Source: Clostridia bacterium (GTDB lineage: Bacteria > Bacillota > Clostridia > Christensenellales > CAG-138). From it: a stretch of DNA of 64,000 nt. This document shows, one piece after another, positions 1 through 8,303 of the stretch; position 1 is the stretch's first letter; each line of letters opens with the position of its first letter. The notes under the pieces were generated by a model. The model was not told where the DNA came from and ran no database searches. It saw only the letters and a program-made list of their open reading frames with translations. The DNA lies in assembly GCA_017525875.1 (NCBI GenBank), contig JAFXSG010000031.1, positions 1-64,000 on the forward strand, given 5' to 3'. Made by a program: the position numbers and the translations under genes.

Positions 1-445
1 CATTGACCGTTAGTTTGAGTACCCCATAGATTTACACTACTCTCAAACTGCGATATCGCAGAAGGGCGATCCCGAACGGTTTGAGTACCCCATAGATTTA
101 CACTACTCTCAAACTCAACAAGCTTTTTTGCAATCGGCATATCCGTTTGAGTACCCCATAGATTTACACTACTCTCAAACAACGGCCAATATTTTCGCGT
201 GGTCAATTCGTTTGAGTACCCCATAGATTTACACTACTCTCAAACTGTATTATAGCCCGCCGTTATGATTTGTCAGTTTGAGTACCCCATAGATTTACAC
301 TACTCTCAAACTATCCGGCATTACCCGTCCGCCGCGATCATGTTTGAGTACCCCATAGATTTACACTACTCTCAAACTATCCTATGTGACTCGTGTTATT
401 TCGATCGGTTTGAGTACCCCATAGATTTACACACTACTCTCAAAC
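1..445 (-). CRISPR. Type II-A CRISPR array (7 repeats seen, continues left)
   Basis: Seven repeats start at 13, 79, 145, 210, 276, 342 and 408. Six are identical 36-mers; the one at 408-445 is 38 nt because of an extra AC. The six complete spacers are 30, 30, 29, 30, 30 and 30 nt, and positions 1-12 are part of a further spacer, so the array continues off the window. On the minus strand the repeat begins GTTTGAGAGTAG and ends GTACTCAAAC. That strand is taken as the crRNA strand because the tracrRNA anti-repeat at 6485-6515 is complementary to it and because the leader and csn2 lie to the right. The right-hand repeat is therefore leader-proximal. I saw no spacer match elsewhere in the window, but this was not an exhaustive search. 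Confidence 0.98.
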
Positions 446-533
446 CTCAAATTCGAGAAAACGGCACTACAAACCGCAGCGAACCATGGGGATTGTGCAT
501 ATTGATTATAGCCGATGACAGCAAAAGAAACAA
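446..533 (-). promoter_or_regulatory. CRISPR leader with pre-crRNA promoter and leader anchor
   Basis: This 88-nt stretch separates the csn2 stop codon from the first repeat. On the minus strand it carries TTGTTT (528-533), a 17-nt spacer and a perfect TATAAT (505-510), which predicts a pre-crRNA start near 498. The last seven leader bases before the repeat read ATTTGAG. This matches one of the conserved leader-anchoring motifs known for type II-A adaptation, where Cas1-Cas2 recognises the leader-repeat junction. Promoter and motif are seen directly; function is inferred from the family. Confidence 0.8.
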
Positions 534-1199: not shown

Positions 1200-1516
1200 A
1201 GGATCACCAGCCTTTCCGTGCTGTCTATCATCTCCGACGTGTTCTCTCCCACGAGATACTTCATACCCGCAAACTGCTTTTCAGTTACGGTCAGCACCTG
1301 AACGATCCCGGCAGGCGGACGGTTCCTGCGCAGCACCTCAATGACCGACGCTTCCACACTTTGGTTTAGTACCATACGGCAGTACACGGATTCCTGCATC
1401 ATAATAAACCCGTTGCCGATCAGCAGCTTGTGAAACTGCCGATAATCCCGCTTGTTCTCCGCCGTTTCCGTGGGCAGATCAAAAAAGACTACAATCCGCA
1501 TAAACCTATAGCTCAT
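1196..1516 (-). CDS. cas2: CRISPR-associated endoribonuclease-fold protein Cas2
   Basis: This 106-residue Cas2 has the typical ferredoxin-like opening strand, [12 protein letters not shown], whose aspartate is the conserved residue of the family. Cas2 dimers bridge two Cas1 dimers and act as the ruler and scaffold for spacer integration rather than as the catalyst. The start lies 11 nt inside the end of cas1 and the stop overlaps csn2, so the adaptation genes are translationally coupled. The length is normal and no lesion is visible. Confidence 0.97.
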
Positions 1517-2381
1517 ATTTGCAATACCTGATCAAAGAGGTGTCTCCATCGTTCAAAGCAGCGAATACGCTCCTGACATAGATCTTTATCCCGTTCAACA
1601 GCGTTTGCCGCGATCCGTCAACGACTACATCGTAATTCAGCAGCTCGATCATTCCATGCTTTTGTTCTGTGCCGAACTCCATATACTTTTCATTGACAAC
1701 GAGCCTGTCGACAAGGGGCCGAAGCGGCTCCATCAGGTCGCAGCCGAGGTTATAGGCATTGAATACGTTGTCGTGGTGTATGCCTATTTGATTAAGGTAG
1801 CCGTTTGCCGAGATCTCCCTGTTGCATACGGAAAGAATAAGGCTGTAGCCGTAGTTCAGCGCTGAATTGATCGGGCATTCAAAGCTCCGAGTGAAGCCCA
1901 TGCCGAAAAGTGCGTTGAAATAAACCTTTGCGGCATGCCCTTCCCTATTGGTGACGTCGCCAAGCTCTATCTCCTCGATGTACCGTGAAAGCAGCTCCGC
2001 CTCACGCTCTTTCCCGAGTTTCATAAGGAATGACGCCTGCCTTGCGATCTTCTCGGCAATGATATTCATCCATACGGCGCTTTTGAGTTCATCCGACCAG
2101 GCCATCTGTATTTTGATCTTTCTTGATGAATCATGGCTTCCCGCATACGGGACGAGCTCGGCGCACGGGTTCCTCTTTTCATCGCAAAAAATCACTTTGA
2201 TCTTTCTGTTTACGAGCTCGGTTATCAGGTATTCCGTCAGGGCGACTGCGGTGCTTTCGATCATCAGGACCGCTATCTCATCCAGATACAGCCTTTTCGT
2301 CGACTCTCCGCGCACTACCATACAGCCGAGTTCATAATCGAGCTTGCATCTGTTCGCTATTACGACCGTTCTCCAGCTCAT
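1506..2381 (-). CDS. cas1: CRISPR-associated integrase Cas1
   Basis: At 291 residues this is a full-length type II Cas1, the metal-dependent integrase that joins protospacers to the leader-repeat junction. The expected catalytic residues are visible: the glutamate in [16 protein letters not shown] (about residue 150), the histidine in [12 protein letters not shown] (about 205) and the acidic residue in [11 protein letters not shown] (about 220). It starts 4 nt inside the end of cas9, so the whole cas9-cas1-cas2-csn2 unit is likely one mRNA. Nothing indicates inactivation, so adaptation should be possible unless the altered leader-proximal repeat interferes. Confidence 0.98.
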
Positions 2382-5300
2382 ATGAGATCAAGCAGATTTG
2401 CCGTTCGCTTTTCGAACAAGCCGGCAGGAGAAACGTCGACTATCACCGCCGAACCGTACTTCTTTTTCCAATTCGAAATGGTCGAACTGAGCGTGAGAAC
2501 GCCTGATTTCTCCACGCCGCCGATCGATTTCAGGTTGCAGCCGCCGGCGCGCCCGGTCTTGAGAAGAGCGACGATCTGCAGCAGCACCTCGACCTGATCC
2601 TCGGTCGAAAGCTTTTTGAAGGTTTCCCTCCCCTTTTCAAGCACGCCGATCTGGCTGTCCAACAATTTATTGAAAAGAGTTTTTTCGATCTTTTCCCGAT
2701 ATTTATCGTAAAGTTCGATGTTCTGTTTTGAAGAGATCTCGTCAAACTCTTCGTCAACGGTCAGCTTCGGTGTTTTCTTTCTCCGTTCACTGAACTTTTC
2801 CAGTTTTTTTACATAGACTTCATGCAAATAATCAATGCGTATCGGCGTTTGAAGCACGATCCCCAACTGACGGCCGCCTCCTGATTTTCCTGTCAGGCAT
2901 ACTCTGCAGCCATCAAGTTCCAATACCGTGTTGATCTTAATGATCCTCATGCCGAGAGGGAAGCTGATATCGGAAACCGGTTTGTTGATTATGGACGATA
3001 TCGTTTTGCCGCTGTATTCACGGGCAAACGCTTCGTCAGAGAGGAACCTGTCCTTATACATAAGCTCCACGGGCATGATCATCAGGTCCTTCTTCTTGCC
3101 GGTGCTGAACCCGACAAACATGAAGAACGACGCTGTCGTCTTGTTGTAGCCGCCGTACTTCTCAGTATCCAGCCCGACCTTCCTCGGGACGAGGCCCGGC
3201 CTTGCGCGCAGGGGCATCTGATCGAACAGCCCGCCCTTGCGGCAGAAGGCATATCTTGTGAAATGAATACAATTTTTAAGCATCGTTTTTCTTACAGCCG
3301 CTATGGATTCCCCGCCGTTCCAAACCGTTCTCTGCCCTATCCTGACGGGCTTTTCAAAGAGCTTTTTCGGCTGAGCGTTATAGTGTTCGCTGACCTTGAA
3401 CCATTCTTTATTAAACCGCTCATGATAAACATTGCCCACAACGATGTTCAGGAAAGCGTCCTTTGCGTGATGTAGGTCATTCACGCTCCTCGTTTTGAGC
3501 ATATCGAAGTCATGACGAAAATCGGATACAATGCCGGCTTTAATATAAACGATCTCGGTCTCGGGGTACATTTCCTTCAGGATCGCCGCAACGGCTTTGG
3601 TGGACTGCCGGGTCTCGACGAGCTGACGATTGATGAAATTCGTTTTTTCCTCGTCGGTGAATCCCTTTGTGCGGGTCAGGCGATGATACTTTTCATCCGT
3701 GATCAATTTCGCCCGGTGAAGCATATCCCAGTGAGCGCGAACAGCGGGATCGCATCTGAACTTTTCCGGCACGGGATAACTGTCTCCCTTATCCGCATTC
3801 GTCGATGAGAGCACGAGCACCTTGTTATTCAGGATGCTGTCGTCCTTAACAAAGCACTGCGGATAGATATGGTCCACGTTGTAAGTGCCGTCCTTCAGCT
3901 TTGTGATATCGATCTTTTTACCCGTGTACATACAGCGGCCGAGCTGCAGATAATACAGGAACAGGCTTTCGCTGCGCAGCTTTTGATCGGCATCGGCGCC
4001 CATGGCGTCAAGGCTGCGCGAAAGCTCGCCGACGTCCTCCTCAACGGATGCATAAAGCTTTTTAAGCTGTTCACAGCGGGATTCAGTGCGCTTATTCTTC
4101 TGATCCTCGCTTGCGCCGCGTGCCATCTCAACGAAGATCTTCTCCGGTGCATGTCCGCATGCTTTGGCGACTTCCTTTACGATCTCGACCGTTCTGATGA
4201 TCGGACGTTTTACGGCATTGGAAACATACATTTCGTCAAGCCTGTTCGTTAGGTTCTTCACTTTTCCAAAATACGCCTTCTGCAGCGCTTCGATATCCTC
4301 AGCGAAAGAGTACCTGTCCGATAGGATCTGCATCAGGTTGTCGTTGGTCTCCCAAAGATAATGGAGTACCGTGTGCAGTTCGCCTGTTCCGTCTTCCCTG
4401 CGAACACCTTCGATGCCGTTCAGCAATTTCCCGGAAAGCCTTCCGAAATCAATGTACTTAAGGGCTGCGACGTACTTTCTGTCCGCCTCGGAAAGAGCCG
4501 GGAATTCCGTATTTATCCACTTAGTGAAGCGGCGGGTATCCTCGGTATACGTGCGCCGCTCAATAATCCGCTCGACGTCATTCTCGGAAAGGATTCCCGT
4601 TGTAAGCAGCCTTGCAAAATCATGATAGGATTTCAGCGAGGATTTGATCGCGATATCAATGCCCTCCAGCGTATCGCCCTTGTGCATCACGCCGTCCGAG
4701 AGAAGCAGCTCCTCGATTGCTTTGCGGGAGACTCTTTTCTTTTTCATAAAGAGCTCGCTGAAGATCCGCTGCTTGCAGCCCACTGTGATCGGTTCGCCGT
4801 TAACACGGATGTTGTTTATTTCGTTCAAGACCGTGTATTTTGAATAGAGAAGCGACTGCTTCGGCAGAACGAATTCATTCGGCAGATAGGAGCACTTGTT
4901 GACCATGCGGTTGAGGAACTCCTGCTCGGATCTGTCCAGATCGACCTTTTCTTCGAAGTTCCAGGGCAGGATCTTGCCCTCTGCTTTACGAACGATCCAT
5001 GTGTGCGAATCCTTCATACCGGTACCGTTCAGCGGACCGACAAAGTACGGCACTCTGAAAGTGAAGACCGACAGCAGCTTGTCCTTCGGCGTAATGCCGT
5101 CTGCGTCTTTTCCGCAGAGGAAAGGAAGATACGTTTCCGCATTATCGAGGATACGTTTGAGTTCATACCAATACAGCTGATATGGGATTATCCTGTTATC
5201 CGGATCAACCTGCTTGGGAAGGAACGTGCGCGTTTCGAGCCGCTGCCTCATATCAGCGAGGAATTCGCCGTCTGCGCCTTCGCATTCTATATCCTTAACA

Positions 5301-6439
5301 AGCTTCCTCAGGTAATCGGAAAAATCATCTTTGCTGGCTTTGGAGACCTTGTCGATATCTCCGATTATCTTTGACGATTTAAGATTCTTAACGTATGCCG
5401 TATAATTTTTCAGATCGCTTTTATAGGTCCTGAATACTTCGTTGTATCTGTCCGGCAGGTACTTTCGCACAAAAGCTTTCAATCCGGCAAGATCCTTTTT
5501 ATGCTGCTCATAGACTGCTACCTTTCCTTCCGAGATCGTATCCTTGCCCTTTCTCGCATCAACAAGGATCGCCCAATCGAACATTGCTTTCAGGCGAACG
5601 ATCAGTTCCGCATCCTCGTCCAGTTCGGCAAGGACCTCCGCTGCGAGAACATCGTCATCTGTGTCGAGTGAAAAGGACTTGATCTCGCTGTAGCTCTCGT
5701 TTTTGAAGAGATCTTCCGCTTTGACCTTACCGCCGCAGAGGAGCCTCAGCATGGCTGCTTTGCTGTACGGGAATCCATCGTCTGCCTTGGGCTTTTTGCC
5801 TCCAAAGAGGAGCTCATAGAAGTCTTTTTCCTTAGACGTAACGCCTTTCTTACTGCGCAAAACAGACGCAAACGCATCGGCGCTGCAATCCCATGGCTTT
5901 TCATCAAAAAGGCTGAGGAATGAATTATAAATGCTGTCAAAAGAGAACAGCCCCTCGATGTTGTCGGTACCGACTTCACTCAGGAAATGACCGCGATGTG
6001 CTATGAGCCATGAACACGCCCAATAAACCAGCCTAGCGTCATGAGGCTTGGTTGAATTCATGAGCTCGACGATAAGATGATGGATCGTCGGATATTTCTT
6101 TTCGTATCCTGTGTCTTCAAGCGCCGTTTCCTTGCAGGATGCGTCCTCGCGCCAAAGAGCACTTTCTCTGCGTTTGATAAAGAAATTCGGATCCGTCTTC
6201 AGGATCTCAGCAGCAAATATCTCATCAGTGAGGAGCTGCCTCTGCTGTCTTCTGTCCAGCCTGCGGCGCGCAGTTCGGTATCCTCTTCTTTCTTCGCATT
6301 GTTTTGCGGCCTCGAATACGGCAACGCCCCACATAGGTTCGCCTTTGAATTTCAGAAGCTTATAATTCTCATCTGTAACCGCATAACCTACGGAATCCGT
6401 TCCGGCGTCGATCCCGATGTAGTATTTTTCGGTTTCCAT
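2378..6439 (-). CDS. cas9: Type II-A CRISPR effector nuclease Cas9
   Basis: The 1353-residue RNA-guided DNA endonuclease is close in size to the streptococcal II-A enzymes. RuvC-I is YYIGIDAGTDSVGYAV with Asp11 as catalytic residue. The arginine-rich bridge helix follows (RRGYRTARRRLDRRQQR, about residues 52-68). RuvC-II is IFVEMARGASEDQ (about 765-780). The HNH nuclease has VDHIYPQCFVKDDS with the catalytic His near 857 and the downstream asparagine in NNKVLVLSS. RuvC-III is HHAKDAFLNIVVGN with Asp near 994. All nuclease residues are present, so double-strand cleavage is expected. The ATG is preceded by GGAGG at a good distance. The -35 box of the tracrRNA promoter sits on the opposite strand between that Shine-Dalgarno and the ATG. 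The PAM cannot be deduced from sequence alone. Confidence 0.98.
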   Translation of the reverse strand: METEKYYIGIDAGTDSVGYAVTDENYKLLKFKGEPMWGVAVFEAAKQCEERRGYRTARRRLDRRQQRQLLTDEIFAAEILKTDPNFFIKRRESALWREDASCKETALEDTGYEKKYPTIHHLIVELMNSTKPHDARLVYWACSWLIAHRGHFLSEVGTDNIEGLFSFDSIYNSFLSLFDEKPWDCSADAFASVLRSKKGVTSKEKDFYELLFGGKKPKADDGFPYSKAAMLRLLCGGKVKAEDLFKNESYSEIKSFSLDTDDDVLAAEVLAELDEDAELIVRLKAMFDWAILVDARKGKDTISEGKVAVYEQHKKDLAGLKAFVRKYLPDRYNEVFRTYKSDLKNYTAYVKNLKSSKIIGDIDKVSKASKDDFSDYLRKLVKDIECEGADGEFLADMRQRLETRTFLPKQVDPDNRIIPYQLYWYELKRILDNAETYLPFLCGKDADGITPKDKLLSVFTFRVPYFVGPLNGTGMKDSHTWIVRKAEGKILPWNFEEKVDLDRSEQEFLNRMVNKCSYLPNEFVLPKQSLLYSKYTVLNEINNIRVNGEPITVGCKQRIFSELFMKKKRVSRKAIEELLLSDGVMHKGDTLEGIDIAIKSSLKSYHDFARLLTTGILSENDVERIIERRTYTEDTRRFTKWINTEFPALSEADRKYVAALKYIDFGRLSGKLLNGIEGVRREDGTGELHTVLHYLWETNDNLMQILSDRYSFAEDIEALQKAYFGKVKNLTNRLDEMYVSNAVKRPIIRTVEIVKEVAKACGHAPEKIFVEMARGASEDQKNKRTESRCEQLKKLYASVEEDVGELSRSLDAMGADADQKLRSESLFLYYLQLGRCMYTGKKIDITKLKDGTYNVDHIYPQCFVKDDSILNNKVLVLSSTNADKGDSYPVPEKFRCDPAVRAHWDMLHRAKLITDEKYHRLTRTKGFTDEEKTNFINRQLVETRQSTKAVAAILKEMYPETEIVYIKAGIVSDFRHDFDMLKTRSVNDLHHAKDAFLNIVVGNVYHERFNKEWFKVSEHYNAQPKKLFEKPVRIGQRTVWNGGESIAAVRKTMLKNCIHFTRYAFCRKGGLFDQMPLRARPGLVPRKVGLDTEKYGGYNKTTASFFMFVGFSTGKKKDLMIMPVELMYKDRFLSDEAFAREYSGKTISSIINKPVSDISFPLGMRIIKINTVLELDGCRVCLTGKSGGGRQLGIVLQTPIRIDYLHEVYVKKLEKFSERRKKTPKLTVDEEFDEISSKQNIELYDKYREKIEKTLFNKLLDSQIGVLEKGRETFKKLSTEDQVEVLLQIVALLKTGRAGGCNLKSIGGVEKSGVLTLSSTISNWKKKYGSAVIVDVSPAGLFEKRTANLLDLI

Positions 6440-6440
6440 A

Positions 6441-6469
6441 TTGACATCCTCCGCAATGTGTGTTATATT
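6441..6469 (+). promoter_or_regulatory. tracrRNA promoter
   Basis: On the plus strand TTGACA (6441-6446), 17 nt, TATATT (6464-6469) form a near-consensus vegetative promoter that predicts a start near 6476, just before the anti-repeat. The -35 box abuts the cas9 start codon (6437-6439) and overlaps its ribosome binding region on the other strand. Confidence 0.85.
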
Positions 6470-6475
6470 CTCAAT

Positions 6476-6593
6476 GTAGTCTATTACCCCATAGACTTAC
6501 ACTACGAGTTCAAATAAAGATTTATCCAAATCGTCGGCTCTGCCGACCGCACAGTGTGTGCACAAGGCGACAACCATCAGGCTGTCGTTTTTA
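6476..6593 (+). ncRNA. tracrRNA
   Basis: The anti-repeat spans 6485-6515. TACCCCATAGA and TTACACTAC pair with the upper part of the crRNA repeat around one mismatch, then a GAGT bulge, then TCAAAT pairs with the GTTTGA that opens the repeat. Downstream are a GTCGGC/GCCGAC hairpin (6533-6547), a GCACA/TGTGC hairpin (6549-6561), and a terminator hairpin CGACAACC/GGCTGTCG with loop ATCA (6568-6587) followed by a T run. This anti-repeat, bulge, stem-loops and terminator order is the standard II-A tracrRNA plan. Expected length is about 115-120 nt. It is transcribed away from cas9. Confidence 0.93.
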
Positions 6594-6621
6594 TTATACT
6601 TTATTCTTTCTCGTTTTGCAA
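6593..6621 (-). promoter_or_regulatory. Likely cas9 operon promoter, downstream of tracrRNA
   Basis: On the minus strand TTGCAA (6616-6621), 17 nt and a perfect TATAAT (6593-6598) predict a start near 6586. Only about 36 nt separate the cas9 ATG from the tracrRNA start, leaving no good promoter between them, so this is the best candidate for the cas operon. The resulting 147-nt mRNA leader would be complementary to nearly the whole tracrRNA. The -10 box overlaps the T run of the tracrRNA terminator. Confidence 0.65.
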
Positions 6622-6758
6622 CGGGAAATTTAAATTAAGAGTCGTAATTTTATCGCTCTTTGTTCTTTTCGTTTTTGGAGGAAAGCGCAGCAGATGCAGG
6701 TTTTCCTATCCGGGGCACATTGACTCGGGTCGGCGGTCCCGAAGTATGATGCGATAAC

Positions 6759-6791
6759 AAAGCACAGTCGCTTCAACGGCAGCTGTGCTTT
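6759..6791. terminator. Hairpin between tracrRNA region and AlbA_2-type gene
   Basis: AAAGCACAG and CTGTGCTTT form a perfect 9-bp stem around a 15-nt loop. It lies between the end of the minus-strand regulator gene (6867) and the cas promoter, and probably ends that gene's transcript, although the T run is short. The rest of 6622-6866 holds no recognisable gene; one open frame there (6554-6757, plus) has no ribosome binding site. Confidence 0.5.
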
Positions 6792-6866
6792 ATGATTAAT
6801 GTTGGATCATTTTGACGCCGAGGCTCGGTTCATCCCCCATGGATCACAGATTGCATATGATCCTGC

Positions 6867-8303
6867 TCATTCTACCGAATAATACTTCTGGAACTTGCTC
6901 CTTGGCTTTTCCGGTATTGTGAGTGCGATCCTGCCTTTTACGATCATAGGTTTGATCAGCTTTTCCATAGCGTAAGCAATGCTCATCCTTCCCTTAAACA
7001 GCTCCTCCAATTCCGCCCTGCTTCTCGGGATCATGCAAAAGCGGAACACTTCGATCTCATCCGCATCGAGGTCCTGCGCGGCAGCCGCTTTGTTGTAGAG
7101 CGTTACCTTGAATACTCCTCTGTCACTTTCAAACTTCGGAGCCTGCAGACCGTGTTCTTCCATCGCATTCAGTATGGTAGGTATTCCGCTGTAACGGTTC
7201 TCGGTCTCTCCAAGTATCTCCATAGCGTTGGCGATCGACGGATTTCTGGTATCTGCCGAAACTTTACCCAGCCTGTCAAGCGTCATTCTTCCATACAGGC
7301 CGCCCGGATTCTCTATCTCGAAGCGGTCGCTGAACATTCGGATGGTAACCGGCGTTGAGTCCGTATGAATGCTGTAATCTCTGTGTATCAGGGCATTGAG
7401 TATCAGCTCTCTCAATGCGATAACGGGATATTCCGTTCGATCGACTCGTTTACCGGTGTTCGGATCTATTATCGTCGCCGTCTTCATATTCTTTCTGACG
7501 AACTGCAGCGATCCGTCTAATATCTGTACGAGCGTTCCGTCGATCCTTTTGTTGTCTATAAACCGCTCTCCCACGCTTCCGGTACTGCTGATCTCTGTTC
7601 CGGGAACGGATACCGCGGTCACGCAAAGCTGTGGGAAGAATGCCTGCGGATAGTTCGAAAAAAGCAGCAGCCCCGCTGCGGTCGGCTTGCCATTATCCAT
7701 AAAGCCCTGAAGCCTGCATATCTCCTCTTCCGGCAAGTCGGCAAGATTGGGCTTTTTGTTTTTCAGGATCCCAAGGTACAGACTGAACGCTGCGGTTTTC
7801 AGATCCCTTTCGGTCGCTCTGTCCGACGTTCTCAATTCATCCTGGATCTTTTTTTTGAACGCTTCATAACTGTAGACCTCGTATTCGGTCATAAGCCTGT
7901 CGGCATCGCCGGATCTGATATAAGAGCCTTTCAGCCTGCCGACGCCGCTGTAGAAGCAGGGCTTATCATTGTTGTCGAGCTCCTGGATCTCCGCGGAAAC
8001 GACGGTTTCCCCGTCGATTTGAGCGACGGTGAACAGCGGTCTTATGACGGGCGACATTTCCTGACACTGAGAATCCACTTTTTTGATCAGATCGGAGGCG
8101 TCGTAAACACCGCAAACGTTGAAACCGTCGTTCTCATCAACGCCGAAAACGATAGTACCTCCGCCCGATTGGTTGGAAAAAGCCGAAAGCGTTTCCCGCA
8201 CTTTTGGGCAGCCGTTCTTTGCCGATTTTGTCTCCACAGTGCTGCTTTCCGACTGCACAGTCTGAATGCTTCTGATCATCTTTTCGAGTTCGGTTTCGAG
8301 CAT
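6867..8303 (-). CDS. AlbA_2-domain/ATPase-type putative transcriptional regulator
   Basis: The 478-residue protein has the three-part architecture of the family often labelled RecG-like regulators or divergent AAA-4/AlbA_2 proteins. The AlbA_2 (Schlafen-related) nucleic-acid binding domain is at about residues 15-140, with ETKSAKNGCPKVRETLSAF and the glycine-rich NQSGGGTIVFGVDE. A GHKL-type ATPase-like domain is at about 270-390, with LILNALIHRDYS and ENPGGLYG. The C-terminal winged-helix-like part includes SRAELEELFKGRMS. It is likely a DNA-binding regulator, and some relatives are linked to defence or mobile elements. AAGGAG precedes the ATG. Its promoter and four upstream TTTATTAGA boxes suggest autoregulation. 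No cognate operon is beside it. Confidence 0.85.
   Translation of the reverse strand: MLETELEKMIRSIQTVQSESSTVETKSAKNGCPKVRETLSAFSNQSGGGTIVFGVDENDGFNVCGVYDASDLIKKVDSQCQEMSPVIRPLFTVAQIDGETVVSAEIQELDNNDKPCFYSGVGRLKGSYIRSGDADRLMTEYEVYSYEAFKKKIQDELRTSDRATERDLKTAAFSLYLGILKNKKPNLADLPEEEICRLQGFMDNGKPTAAGLLLFSNYPQAFFPQLCVTAVSVPGTEISSTGSVGERFIDNKRIDGTLVQILDGSLQFVRKNMKTATIIDPNTGKRVDRTEYPVIALRELILNALIHRDYSIHTDSTPVTIRMFSDRFEIENPGGLYGRMTLDRLGKVSADTRNPSIANAMEILGETENRYSGIPTILNAMEEHGLQAPKFESDRGVFKVTLYNKAAAAQDLDADEIEVFRFCMIPRSRAELEELFKGRMSIAYAMEKLIKPMIVKGRIALTIPEKPRSKFQKYYSVE

What the first reader, a model, noticed from the sequence alone, without database searches (positions are those of the whole stretch)
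6441..6621. cas9 mRNA leader would be fully antisense to the tracrRNA
Seen: the tracrRNA promoter (TTGACA-N17-TATATT) touches the cas9 start codon, and only about 36 nt separate cas9 from the tracrRNA start. The only good minus-strand promoter (TTGCAA-N17-TATAAT, 6593-6621) lies beyond the tracrRNA terminator. The two promoters therefore face each other across the whole tracrRNA gene, so the cas9 leader (about 6586 to 6440) is complementary to nearly all of the tracrRNA and contains a repeat-like segment opposite the anti-repeat. Inference: cas9 expression and tracrRNA level could be mutually controlled by transcriptional collision or by RNase III cleavage of the duplex. In the streptococcal arrangement I know, the tracrRNA is transcribed away from cas9 with the cas promoter between them.
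Basis: partly seen in the sequence, partly recalled or inferred. Interest (0 to 1): 0.75.

Follow-up and report, generated by a model that had tools for sequence, protein, structure and literature searches.

The report
Cas9 message runs across its tracrRNA
In one bacterial CRISPR-Cas9 system the best match to a cas9 promoter lies beyond the far end of the tracrRNA gene and points back across it, so the cas9 message would begin with a mirror copy of about 95% of the small RNA that Cas9 needs, and the two RNAs are predicted to hold each other down; many relatives share the layout, a promoter at this place is already known in one streptococcus, and the effect is untested.

Summary
The two facing promoters are where stated, and the predicted cas9 leader (6586-6440) would cover 111 of about 117 nt of the predicted tracrRNA. 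In the window alone the promoter matches are not beyond chance (2 found, 1.6 expected). Relatives lift them: tracrRNA is divergent from cas9 in 61 of 78 loci, its -35 box within 10 nt of the cas9 start in 42 of those 61. A cas9-directed promoter beyond the tracrRNA terminator (score >=10) occurs in 29 of 57 non-redundant loci, 12 of 57 on the reverse strand, about 10 from shuffles. A second sample of 18: 11 at >=12, reverse strand 0; at >=10, 13 and 8.

Not universal: 13 of 36 loci without an abutting upstream gene lack it; 23 of 61 tracrRNA terminators look two-way.

The geometry is known once: in Streptococcus agalactiae an antisense RNA overlaps the tracrRNA 3' end (PMC4448216), and promoter P2cas, located there, drives the cas operon (PMC12216829). 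New is its recurrence in a mainly clostridial II-A group, usually with the tracrRNA promoter filling the gap before cas9. Regulation by pairing and RNase III is inferred.

The parts
2378..6439 (-). cas9 (1353 aa), type II-A
   Evidence: TIGR01865 E=1.2e-261; Cas9_REC, HNH, RuvC, PI domains
1506..2381 (-). cas1
   Evidence: TIGR03639
1196..1516 (-). cas2
   Evidence: TIGR01573
534..1199 (-). csn2
   Evidence: TIGR01866, type II-A
10..454 (-). CRISPR array, 7 repeats in the window (cas9-sense repeat GTTTGAGAGTAGTGTAAATCTATGGGGTACTCAAAC); strand inferred from the anti-repeat
   Evidence: direct repeats, 65-66 nt spacing
6441..6469 (+). predicted tracrRNA promoter TTGACA-N17-TATATT, extended -10; the -35 box ends 1 nt from the cas9 start codon
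   Evidence: -35 complement [TA]GTC[AT]A within 10 nt of the cas9 start in 42 of 61 divergent loci
6448..6452 (-). cas9 Shine-Dalgarno GGAGG, inside the tracrRNA promoter spacer
   Evidence: sequence
6476..6592 (+). predicted tracrRNA, about 117 nt
   Evidence: promoter, anti-repeat and terminator; single full copy in the held genome
6475..6501 (+). hairpin at the tracrRNA 5' end that would mask the upper anti-repeat; mirrored in the cas9 leader
   Evidence: fold -7.8 kcal/mol, z -3.0; 52 of 61 loci z < -1.5
6485..6517 (+). anti-repeat (repeat-like on the - strand)
   Evidence: 6485-6505 95% identical to the repeat; lower-stem motif GTTCAAATAA 6508-6517
6533..6547 (+). nexus-like hairpin GTCGGC-TCT-GCCGAC
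   Evidence: sequence; recognised by eye, not by a family model
6567..6592 (+). tracrRNA intrinsic terminator
   Evidence: stem 6567-6588 and T-run; no strong T-run on the cas9-sense side (3 of 8)
6593..6621 (-). predicted cas9 promoter TTGCAA-N17-TATAAT, beyond the tracrRNA terminator
   Evidence: score 14.1; in L020, with a different outer flank, TTGCGA-N17-TATAAT at the same place
6440..6586 (-). predicted cas9 mRNA leader, 147 nt, complementary to tracrRNA 6476-6586
   Evidence: inferred from the promoter; overlap 111 nt; duplex energy -228.6 kcal/mol against -36.4 for tracrRNA with the repeat

Best explanation
The best cas9 promoter match lies just beyond the tracrRNA terminator and faces the tracrRNA promoter across the tracrRNA gene, so the cas9 message would start with a leader complementary to about 95% of the predicted tracrRNA, and the two transcripts likely restrain each other. 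Shown from sequence: the two promoter matches, a 36-nt gap before cas9 that the tracrRNA promoter fills, and the recurrence of the layout in many relatives. Inferred: polymerases starting cas9 cross the tracrRNA gene and its promoter, while tracrRNA polymerases end at the cas9 -10 box. Free tracrRNA (not held by Cas9) pairs with the leader, RNase III cuts the duplex, and cas9 mRNA is left with a trimmed 5' end near 6476 that still carries the ribosome site but is likely shorter-lived. A perfect duplex also leaves no bulge or nexus, so the leader would act as a decoy for tracrRNA, not as a guide. Cas9 protein that binds tracrRNA would relieve this.
For: Geometry in the window. External promoter enriched beyond the terminator: mean 10.96 against 8.03 on the reverse strand, Wilcoxon p=3.6e-6, n=57. 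Sister L020 (90% Cas9 identity) keeps TTGCGA-17-TATAAT although its outer flank differs. The external promoter (>=12) is found mainly where no codirectional gene abuts: 23 of 36 against 2 of 18, p=3.6e-4, reverse-strand control 2 of 36 and 0 of 18. In those loci without an abutting gene the tracrRNA terminator also more often lacks a cas9-side U-run (two-way in 7 of 36 against 12 of 18, p=0.001). RNase III is encoded; one full tracrRNA copy. Precedents: P2cas and an antisense RNA at the tracrRNA 3' end in S. agalactiae; RNase III acting on a cis-antisense sRNA pair in C. jejuni (abstract of PMC8687705).
Against: No transcript was measured. 13 of 36 loci without an abutting gene have no external promoter at >=12, including L043 (70% Cas9 identity). 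At the looser threshold of 10 the second sample is much less clear: 13 of 18 against 8 of 18 on the reverse strand. 23 of 61 terminators have a cas9-side U-run that would stop an incoming cas9 transcript. Cas9-directed sites inside the tracrRNA gene are slightly above shuffles (8.60 against 7.98, p=0.04; 18 of 57 at >=10 against 9.9 expected). Loci are related by descent, so the p-values are optimistic. The direct link between promoter score and U-run depends on the threshold: p=0.028 at 10, 0.011 at 12, 0.15 at 13. In S. agalactiae, crRNA transcription did not depend on P2cas (PMC12216829), and I saw no tracrRNA level reported there in what I read.
Confidence: 0.48

Rival explanations
1. The overlap is real but has no regulatory meaning: a compact locus in which cas9 is transcribed from the nearest available promoter, and the tracrRNA, in large excess, is unaffected.
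For: External promoters differ in sequence and distance and lie in flanks that differ between loci, as expected if the island uses whatever promoter lies outside. 18 of 54 loci have a codirectional gene ending within 100 nt of the terminator, mostly without such a promoter.
Against: The tight packing (tracrRNA -35 within 10 nt of the cas9 start in 42 of 61) leaves no room for a proximal promoter in many lineages although one would be easy to evolve. A fully complementary transcript in a cell with RNase III is unlikely to be inert (inference).
Confidence: 0.3
2. cas9 is transcribed from a promoter inside the tracrRNA gene or from the back of the tracrRNA -10 box, so its leader is short and overlaps little or none of the tracrRNA.
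For: Internal sites slightly exceed shuffles over 57 loci (p=0.04), with a recurring TTGAAT-N17-TATAGT in some distant relatives such as L062 and L069. Two-way terminators in 23 of 61 loci would favour it there.
Against: In the window the best internal site scores 5.8, below its shuffle mean of 8.7; in the second sample 0 of 18 internal sites reach 12 and 2 of 18 reach 10. By eye, the feature shared at the -10 box is the tracrRNA-direction extended -10.
Confidence: 0.17
3. A tracr-L-like natural single guide RNA represses the cas9 promoter, as in S. pyogenes.
For: The tracrRNA 5' end carries a segment that pairs with its own anti-repeat, as a single guide would.
Against: The only tracrRNA-direction promoter match in 6000-7200 starts the RNA at that segment, leaving no guide. 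No stretch of 8 nt or more of 6340-6490 recurs in 6500-6760 on either strand, whereas tracr-L needs a match to the cas promoter (PMC11417352).
Confidence: 0.05

Closest known systems
P2cas promoter (PMC12216829) and tracrRNA-3'-end antisense RNA (PMC4448216) of Streptococcus agalactiae; passages and one section seen
   Different: There P2cas is a second, CovR-repressed promoter beside a proximal P1cas (lost in CC-17); the tracrRNA-cas9 intergenic region is given as 389 bp, or 280 bp without P1cas. Here the tracrRNA promoter fills the 36-nt gap, so no separate proximal promoter fits, and the layout recurs in a mainly clostridial II-A group.
tracr-L natural single guide RNA autoregulation of Pcas (S. 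pyogenes, S. mutans; PMC11417352, abstract and passages seen)
   Same: tracrRNA-linked negative control of cas9 would result in both.
   Different: No long tracrRNA promoter and no guide match found here; the proposed action is RNA pairing and interference in cis.
CJnc190/CJnc180 cis-antisense sRNA pair (C. jejuni; PMC8687705, abstract and outline seen)
   Same: A trans-acting small RNA faced by an overlapping antisense transcript, with RNase III processing.
   Different: There the partner is another sRNA; here it would be the leader of the mRNA for the protein that uses the small RNA.
Non-canonical crRNAs from cellular transcripts (PMC8224270, passages seen)
   Same: An mRNA stretch pairs with the tracrRNA anti-repeat.
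   Different: There pairing is partial and can yield guides; here complementarity extends over nexus and terminator, so a functional guide is unlikely (inference).

Membership tests
Type II-A CRISPR-Cas | cas9, cas1, cas2 and csn2 side by side on one strand with an array | tested here: met
Type II-A CRISPR-Cas | tracrRNA with anti-repeat and terminator near cas9 | tested here: met
   no Rfam family marked it at the gathering threshold
P2cas-type cas promoter at the tracrRNA 3' end | cas9-directed promoter at or beyond the tracrRNA terminator | tested here: met
   promoter match only; activity not measured
P2cas-type cas promoter at the tracrRNA 3' end | mapped start site and cas transcription from it | not testable with these tools
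   no RNA data for this organism
P2cas-type cas promoter at the tracrRNA 3' end | distal partner of a proximal P1cas | tested here: not met
   36-nt gap filled by the tracrRNA promoter; best internal cas9-directed score 5.8, below shuffles. S. agalactiae CC-17 strains also lack P1cas, so this marks a variant
tracr-L natural single guide autoregulation | second, upstream tracrRNA promoter giving a long form | tested here: not met
   only one + strand promoter match in 6000-7200; consensus scan only
tracr-L natural single guide autoregulation | guide stretch matching the cas promoter (11 nt in S. pyogenes) | tested here: not met
   no match of 8 nt or more
cis-antisense RNA pair acted on by RNase III | overlapping complementary transcripts | tested here: inconclusive
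   follows from predicted promoters; transcripts not observed
cis-antisense RNA pair acted on by RNase III | RNase III present and cutting the duplex | tested here: inconclusive
   gene present; cutting not testable here

The most novel reading that the evidence does not exclude
Across a mainly clostridial branch of type II-A systems, the cas9 mRNA leader is a built-in antisense decoy of its own cofactor: cas9 mRNA and tracrRNA destroy or block each other until Cas9 protein shelters the tracrRNA, making the locus a double-negative switch that can hold a Cas9-low and a Cas9-high state, with mirror hairpins in both RNAs as the pairing start points.
Probability: 0.2. Interest if true: 0.78.

Novelty: new variant of a known kind. 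Interest (0 to 1): 0.52.

Why it matters
How bacteria keep Cas9 low yet ready is an open question; the answers I saw come from streptococci (tracr-L and CovR). If cas9 in this II-A group is transcribed only across its tracrRNA, then Cas9 and its RNA cofactor cannot be made independently at that locus. That gives a simple, testable wiring for matching their amounts, and warns that tracrRNA or cas9 constructs cut from such loci may change expression when the promoters are separated.

Tried and rejected
Natural single guide (tracr-L): no second promoter and no guide match.

Leader as a non-canonical crRNA: rejected by reasoning only; a full-length duplex would hide the nexus and bulge (the need for the bulge is recalled, not from a call).

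Strand of the conserved 5' hairpin: I asked whether it is selected in the tracrRNA or in the leader by counting wobble pairs; G-U 38 and A-C 43 over 60 stems, and mean fold energies are alike on the two strands (-8.15 and -8.09), so no strand is favoured. Both RNAs, a DNA palindrome or sequence conversion between arms all remain possible.

Internal cas9 promoter: weak overall, absent in the window.

Read-through from the upstream gene 6867-8303: considered only; the scan showed no - strand terminator between 6621 and 6866, so it is not excluded.

Rfam gave only a tRNA. Ten paper searches (open-licence PMC only; listings seen) showed no paper, beyond the two on S. agalactiae, on a cas transcript antisense to tracrRNA; not every listed paper was opened (PMC3656092, for one, was not). 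PMC6882279, PMC11288051 and PMC6546361 were seen as passages and gave nothing on it. Chylinski 2013 was not held; Workman 2021 and Faure 2019 were not looked up.

Full report
What is there. [quoted passage not shown] The tracrRNA gene lies upstream of cas9 on the plus strand. Its promoter TTGACA-N17-TATATT (6441-6469) begins one base from the cas9 start codon, its anti-repeat is at 6485-6517, and its terminator ends near 6592. The cas9 ribosome site GGAGG lies inside the tracrRNA promoter. The only minus-strand promoter match in 6000-7200 is TTGCAA-N17-TATAAT at 6621-6593, with its -10 box just past the terminator T-run. A transcript from it would start near 6586 and be complementary to 111 of about 117 nt of the tracrRNA. 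All transcript starts and ends are predictions.

Chance. In the window alone this is weak: two promoter-like sites against 1.6 +/- 1.3 in shuffles. The case rests on relatives.

Relatives. One search kept 79 loci (36-90% Cas9 identity; record titles mostly name Clostridia, many from rumen or gut); 77 had upstream sequence. With the window, 61 of 78 have the tracrRNA divergent from cas9, 12 codirectional, and 5 neither by motif, three of these with under 360 nt of upstream sequence and two (L073, L091) with a divergent anti-repeat. In the 61, a terminator-like hairpin was found in each, and the tracrRNA -35 complement lies within 10 nt of the cas9 start in 42. I scored cas9-directed promoters up to 80 nt beyond the terminator in 57 non-redundant loci: 29 reach 10, against 12 on the reverse strand and about 10 expected from shuffles; means 10.96, 8.03 and 7.87. 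The sister locus L020 has a different outer flank, yet TTGCGA-N17-TATAAT stands at the same place. L021 and L022 have high-scoring promoters about 50 nt beyond the terminator edge, and L005 (58% Cas9 identity) has TTTACA-N17-TATAAT; L043 (70%) has none.

Two kinds of neighbourhood. In 18 of 54 loci a codirectional gene ends within 100 nt of the tracrRNA terminator. There only 2 of 18 have an external promoter (>=12), and 12 of 18 terminators have a U-run on the cas9 side too. In the other 36, 23 have the promoter and only 7 a two-way terminator (Fisher p=3.6e-4 and 0.001; reverse-strand promoter control 2 of 36 and 0 of 18). This fits one-way terminators that let cas9 transcripts pass where cas9 depends on an outside promoter. 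It also means that loci with two-way terminators may transcribe cas9 otherwise, and 13 of 36 loci have neither an abutting gene nor the promoter. Relatedness of the loci makes these p-values optimistic. The direct test of promoter against U-run gives p=0.028, 0.011 and 0.15 at thresholds 10, 12 and 13.

A conserved hairpin. In 52 of 61 loci the tracrRNA 5' end folds onto its own upper anti-repeat (z < -1.5, mean z -3.3); the best stems have 9.4 Watson-Crick pairs against 6.0 in shuffles. Over 48 loci with an array, the 5' arm resembles the locus's own repeat more than other repeats (mean score 14.0 against 11.3), although in the window 9 of 26 other repeats score as well. G-U (38) and A-C (43) are about equally common, so the data do not say whether the hairpin serves the tracrRNA, the leader, both, or a DNA-level role.

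Mechanism. I commit to mutual restraint, with these steps inferred: (1) each cas9 polymerase crosses the tracrRNA gene and promoter, and tracrRNA polymerases stop at the cas9 -10 box; (2) free tracrRNA pairs with the leader (computed duplex -228.6 kcal/mol against -36.4 for tracrRNA with the repeat); (3) RNase III, encoded in this genome, cuts the duplex; (4) the trimmed cas9 mRNA keeps its ribosome site but is likely less stable; (5) Cas9 protein shelters tracrRNA and relieves the effect.

Known. In S. agalactiae, RNA-seq found an antisense RNA of about 100 nt over the tracrRNA 3' end, called unique to that species and suggested to modulate tracrRNA (PMC4448216, passages). [quoted passage not shown] That P2cas makes the RNA seen in 2015 is my inference. 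That paper's main text does not hold the words antisense, collision or convergent. The geometry is therefore known once. Its recurrence in a mainly clostridial group, usually with the tracrRNA promoter against the cas9 start, was not found in my searches.

Verdict. Observation confirmed; interpretation plausible and partly supported; a new variant of a known kind.

Noticed in passing
window 6475-6501; L020-L098: The tracrRNA 5' end forms a conserved hairpin with its own upper anti-repeat (52 of 61 loci at z < -1.5), mirrored in the cas9 leader, with no preference for either RNA strand. Function unknown.
   Followed up: partly
L028, L034, L035, L036, L058, L065 upstream of cas9: A WYL-domain regulator gene, codirectional with cas9, ends close to or overlapping the tracrRNA terminator; a candidate regulator of these II-A loci.
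   Followed up: partly
L059, L061, L074-L076, L083-L086, L088, L092 (L068 by motif only): A second layout in which the tracrRNA is codirectional with and upstream of cas9 (12 of 78 loci by motif).
   Followed up: no
window 1-454 and G000 contig C26:76-690: The array runs to the window's edge, and at least 8 more copies of the same repeat core lie at the start of another contig, so the array is probably split by the assembly.
   Followed up: no
window 6867-8303 (-): Upstream gene encodes a Schlafen AlbA_2 / HATPase_c_4 protein, not an obvious CRISPR partner.
   Followed up: no
L062, L063, L069, L090: A cas9-directed promoter-like site TTGRAW-N17-TATAGT inside the tracrRNA lower stem, scoring 10-12; it may be an internal cas9 promoter in that subgroup.
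   Followed up: no
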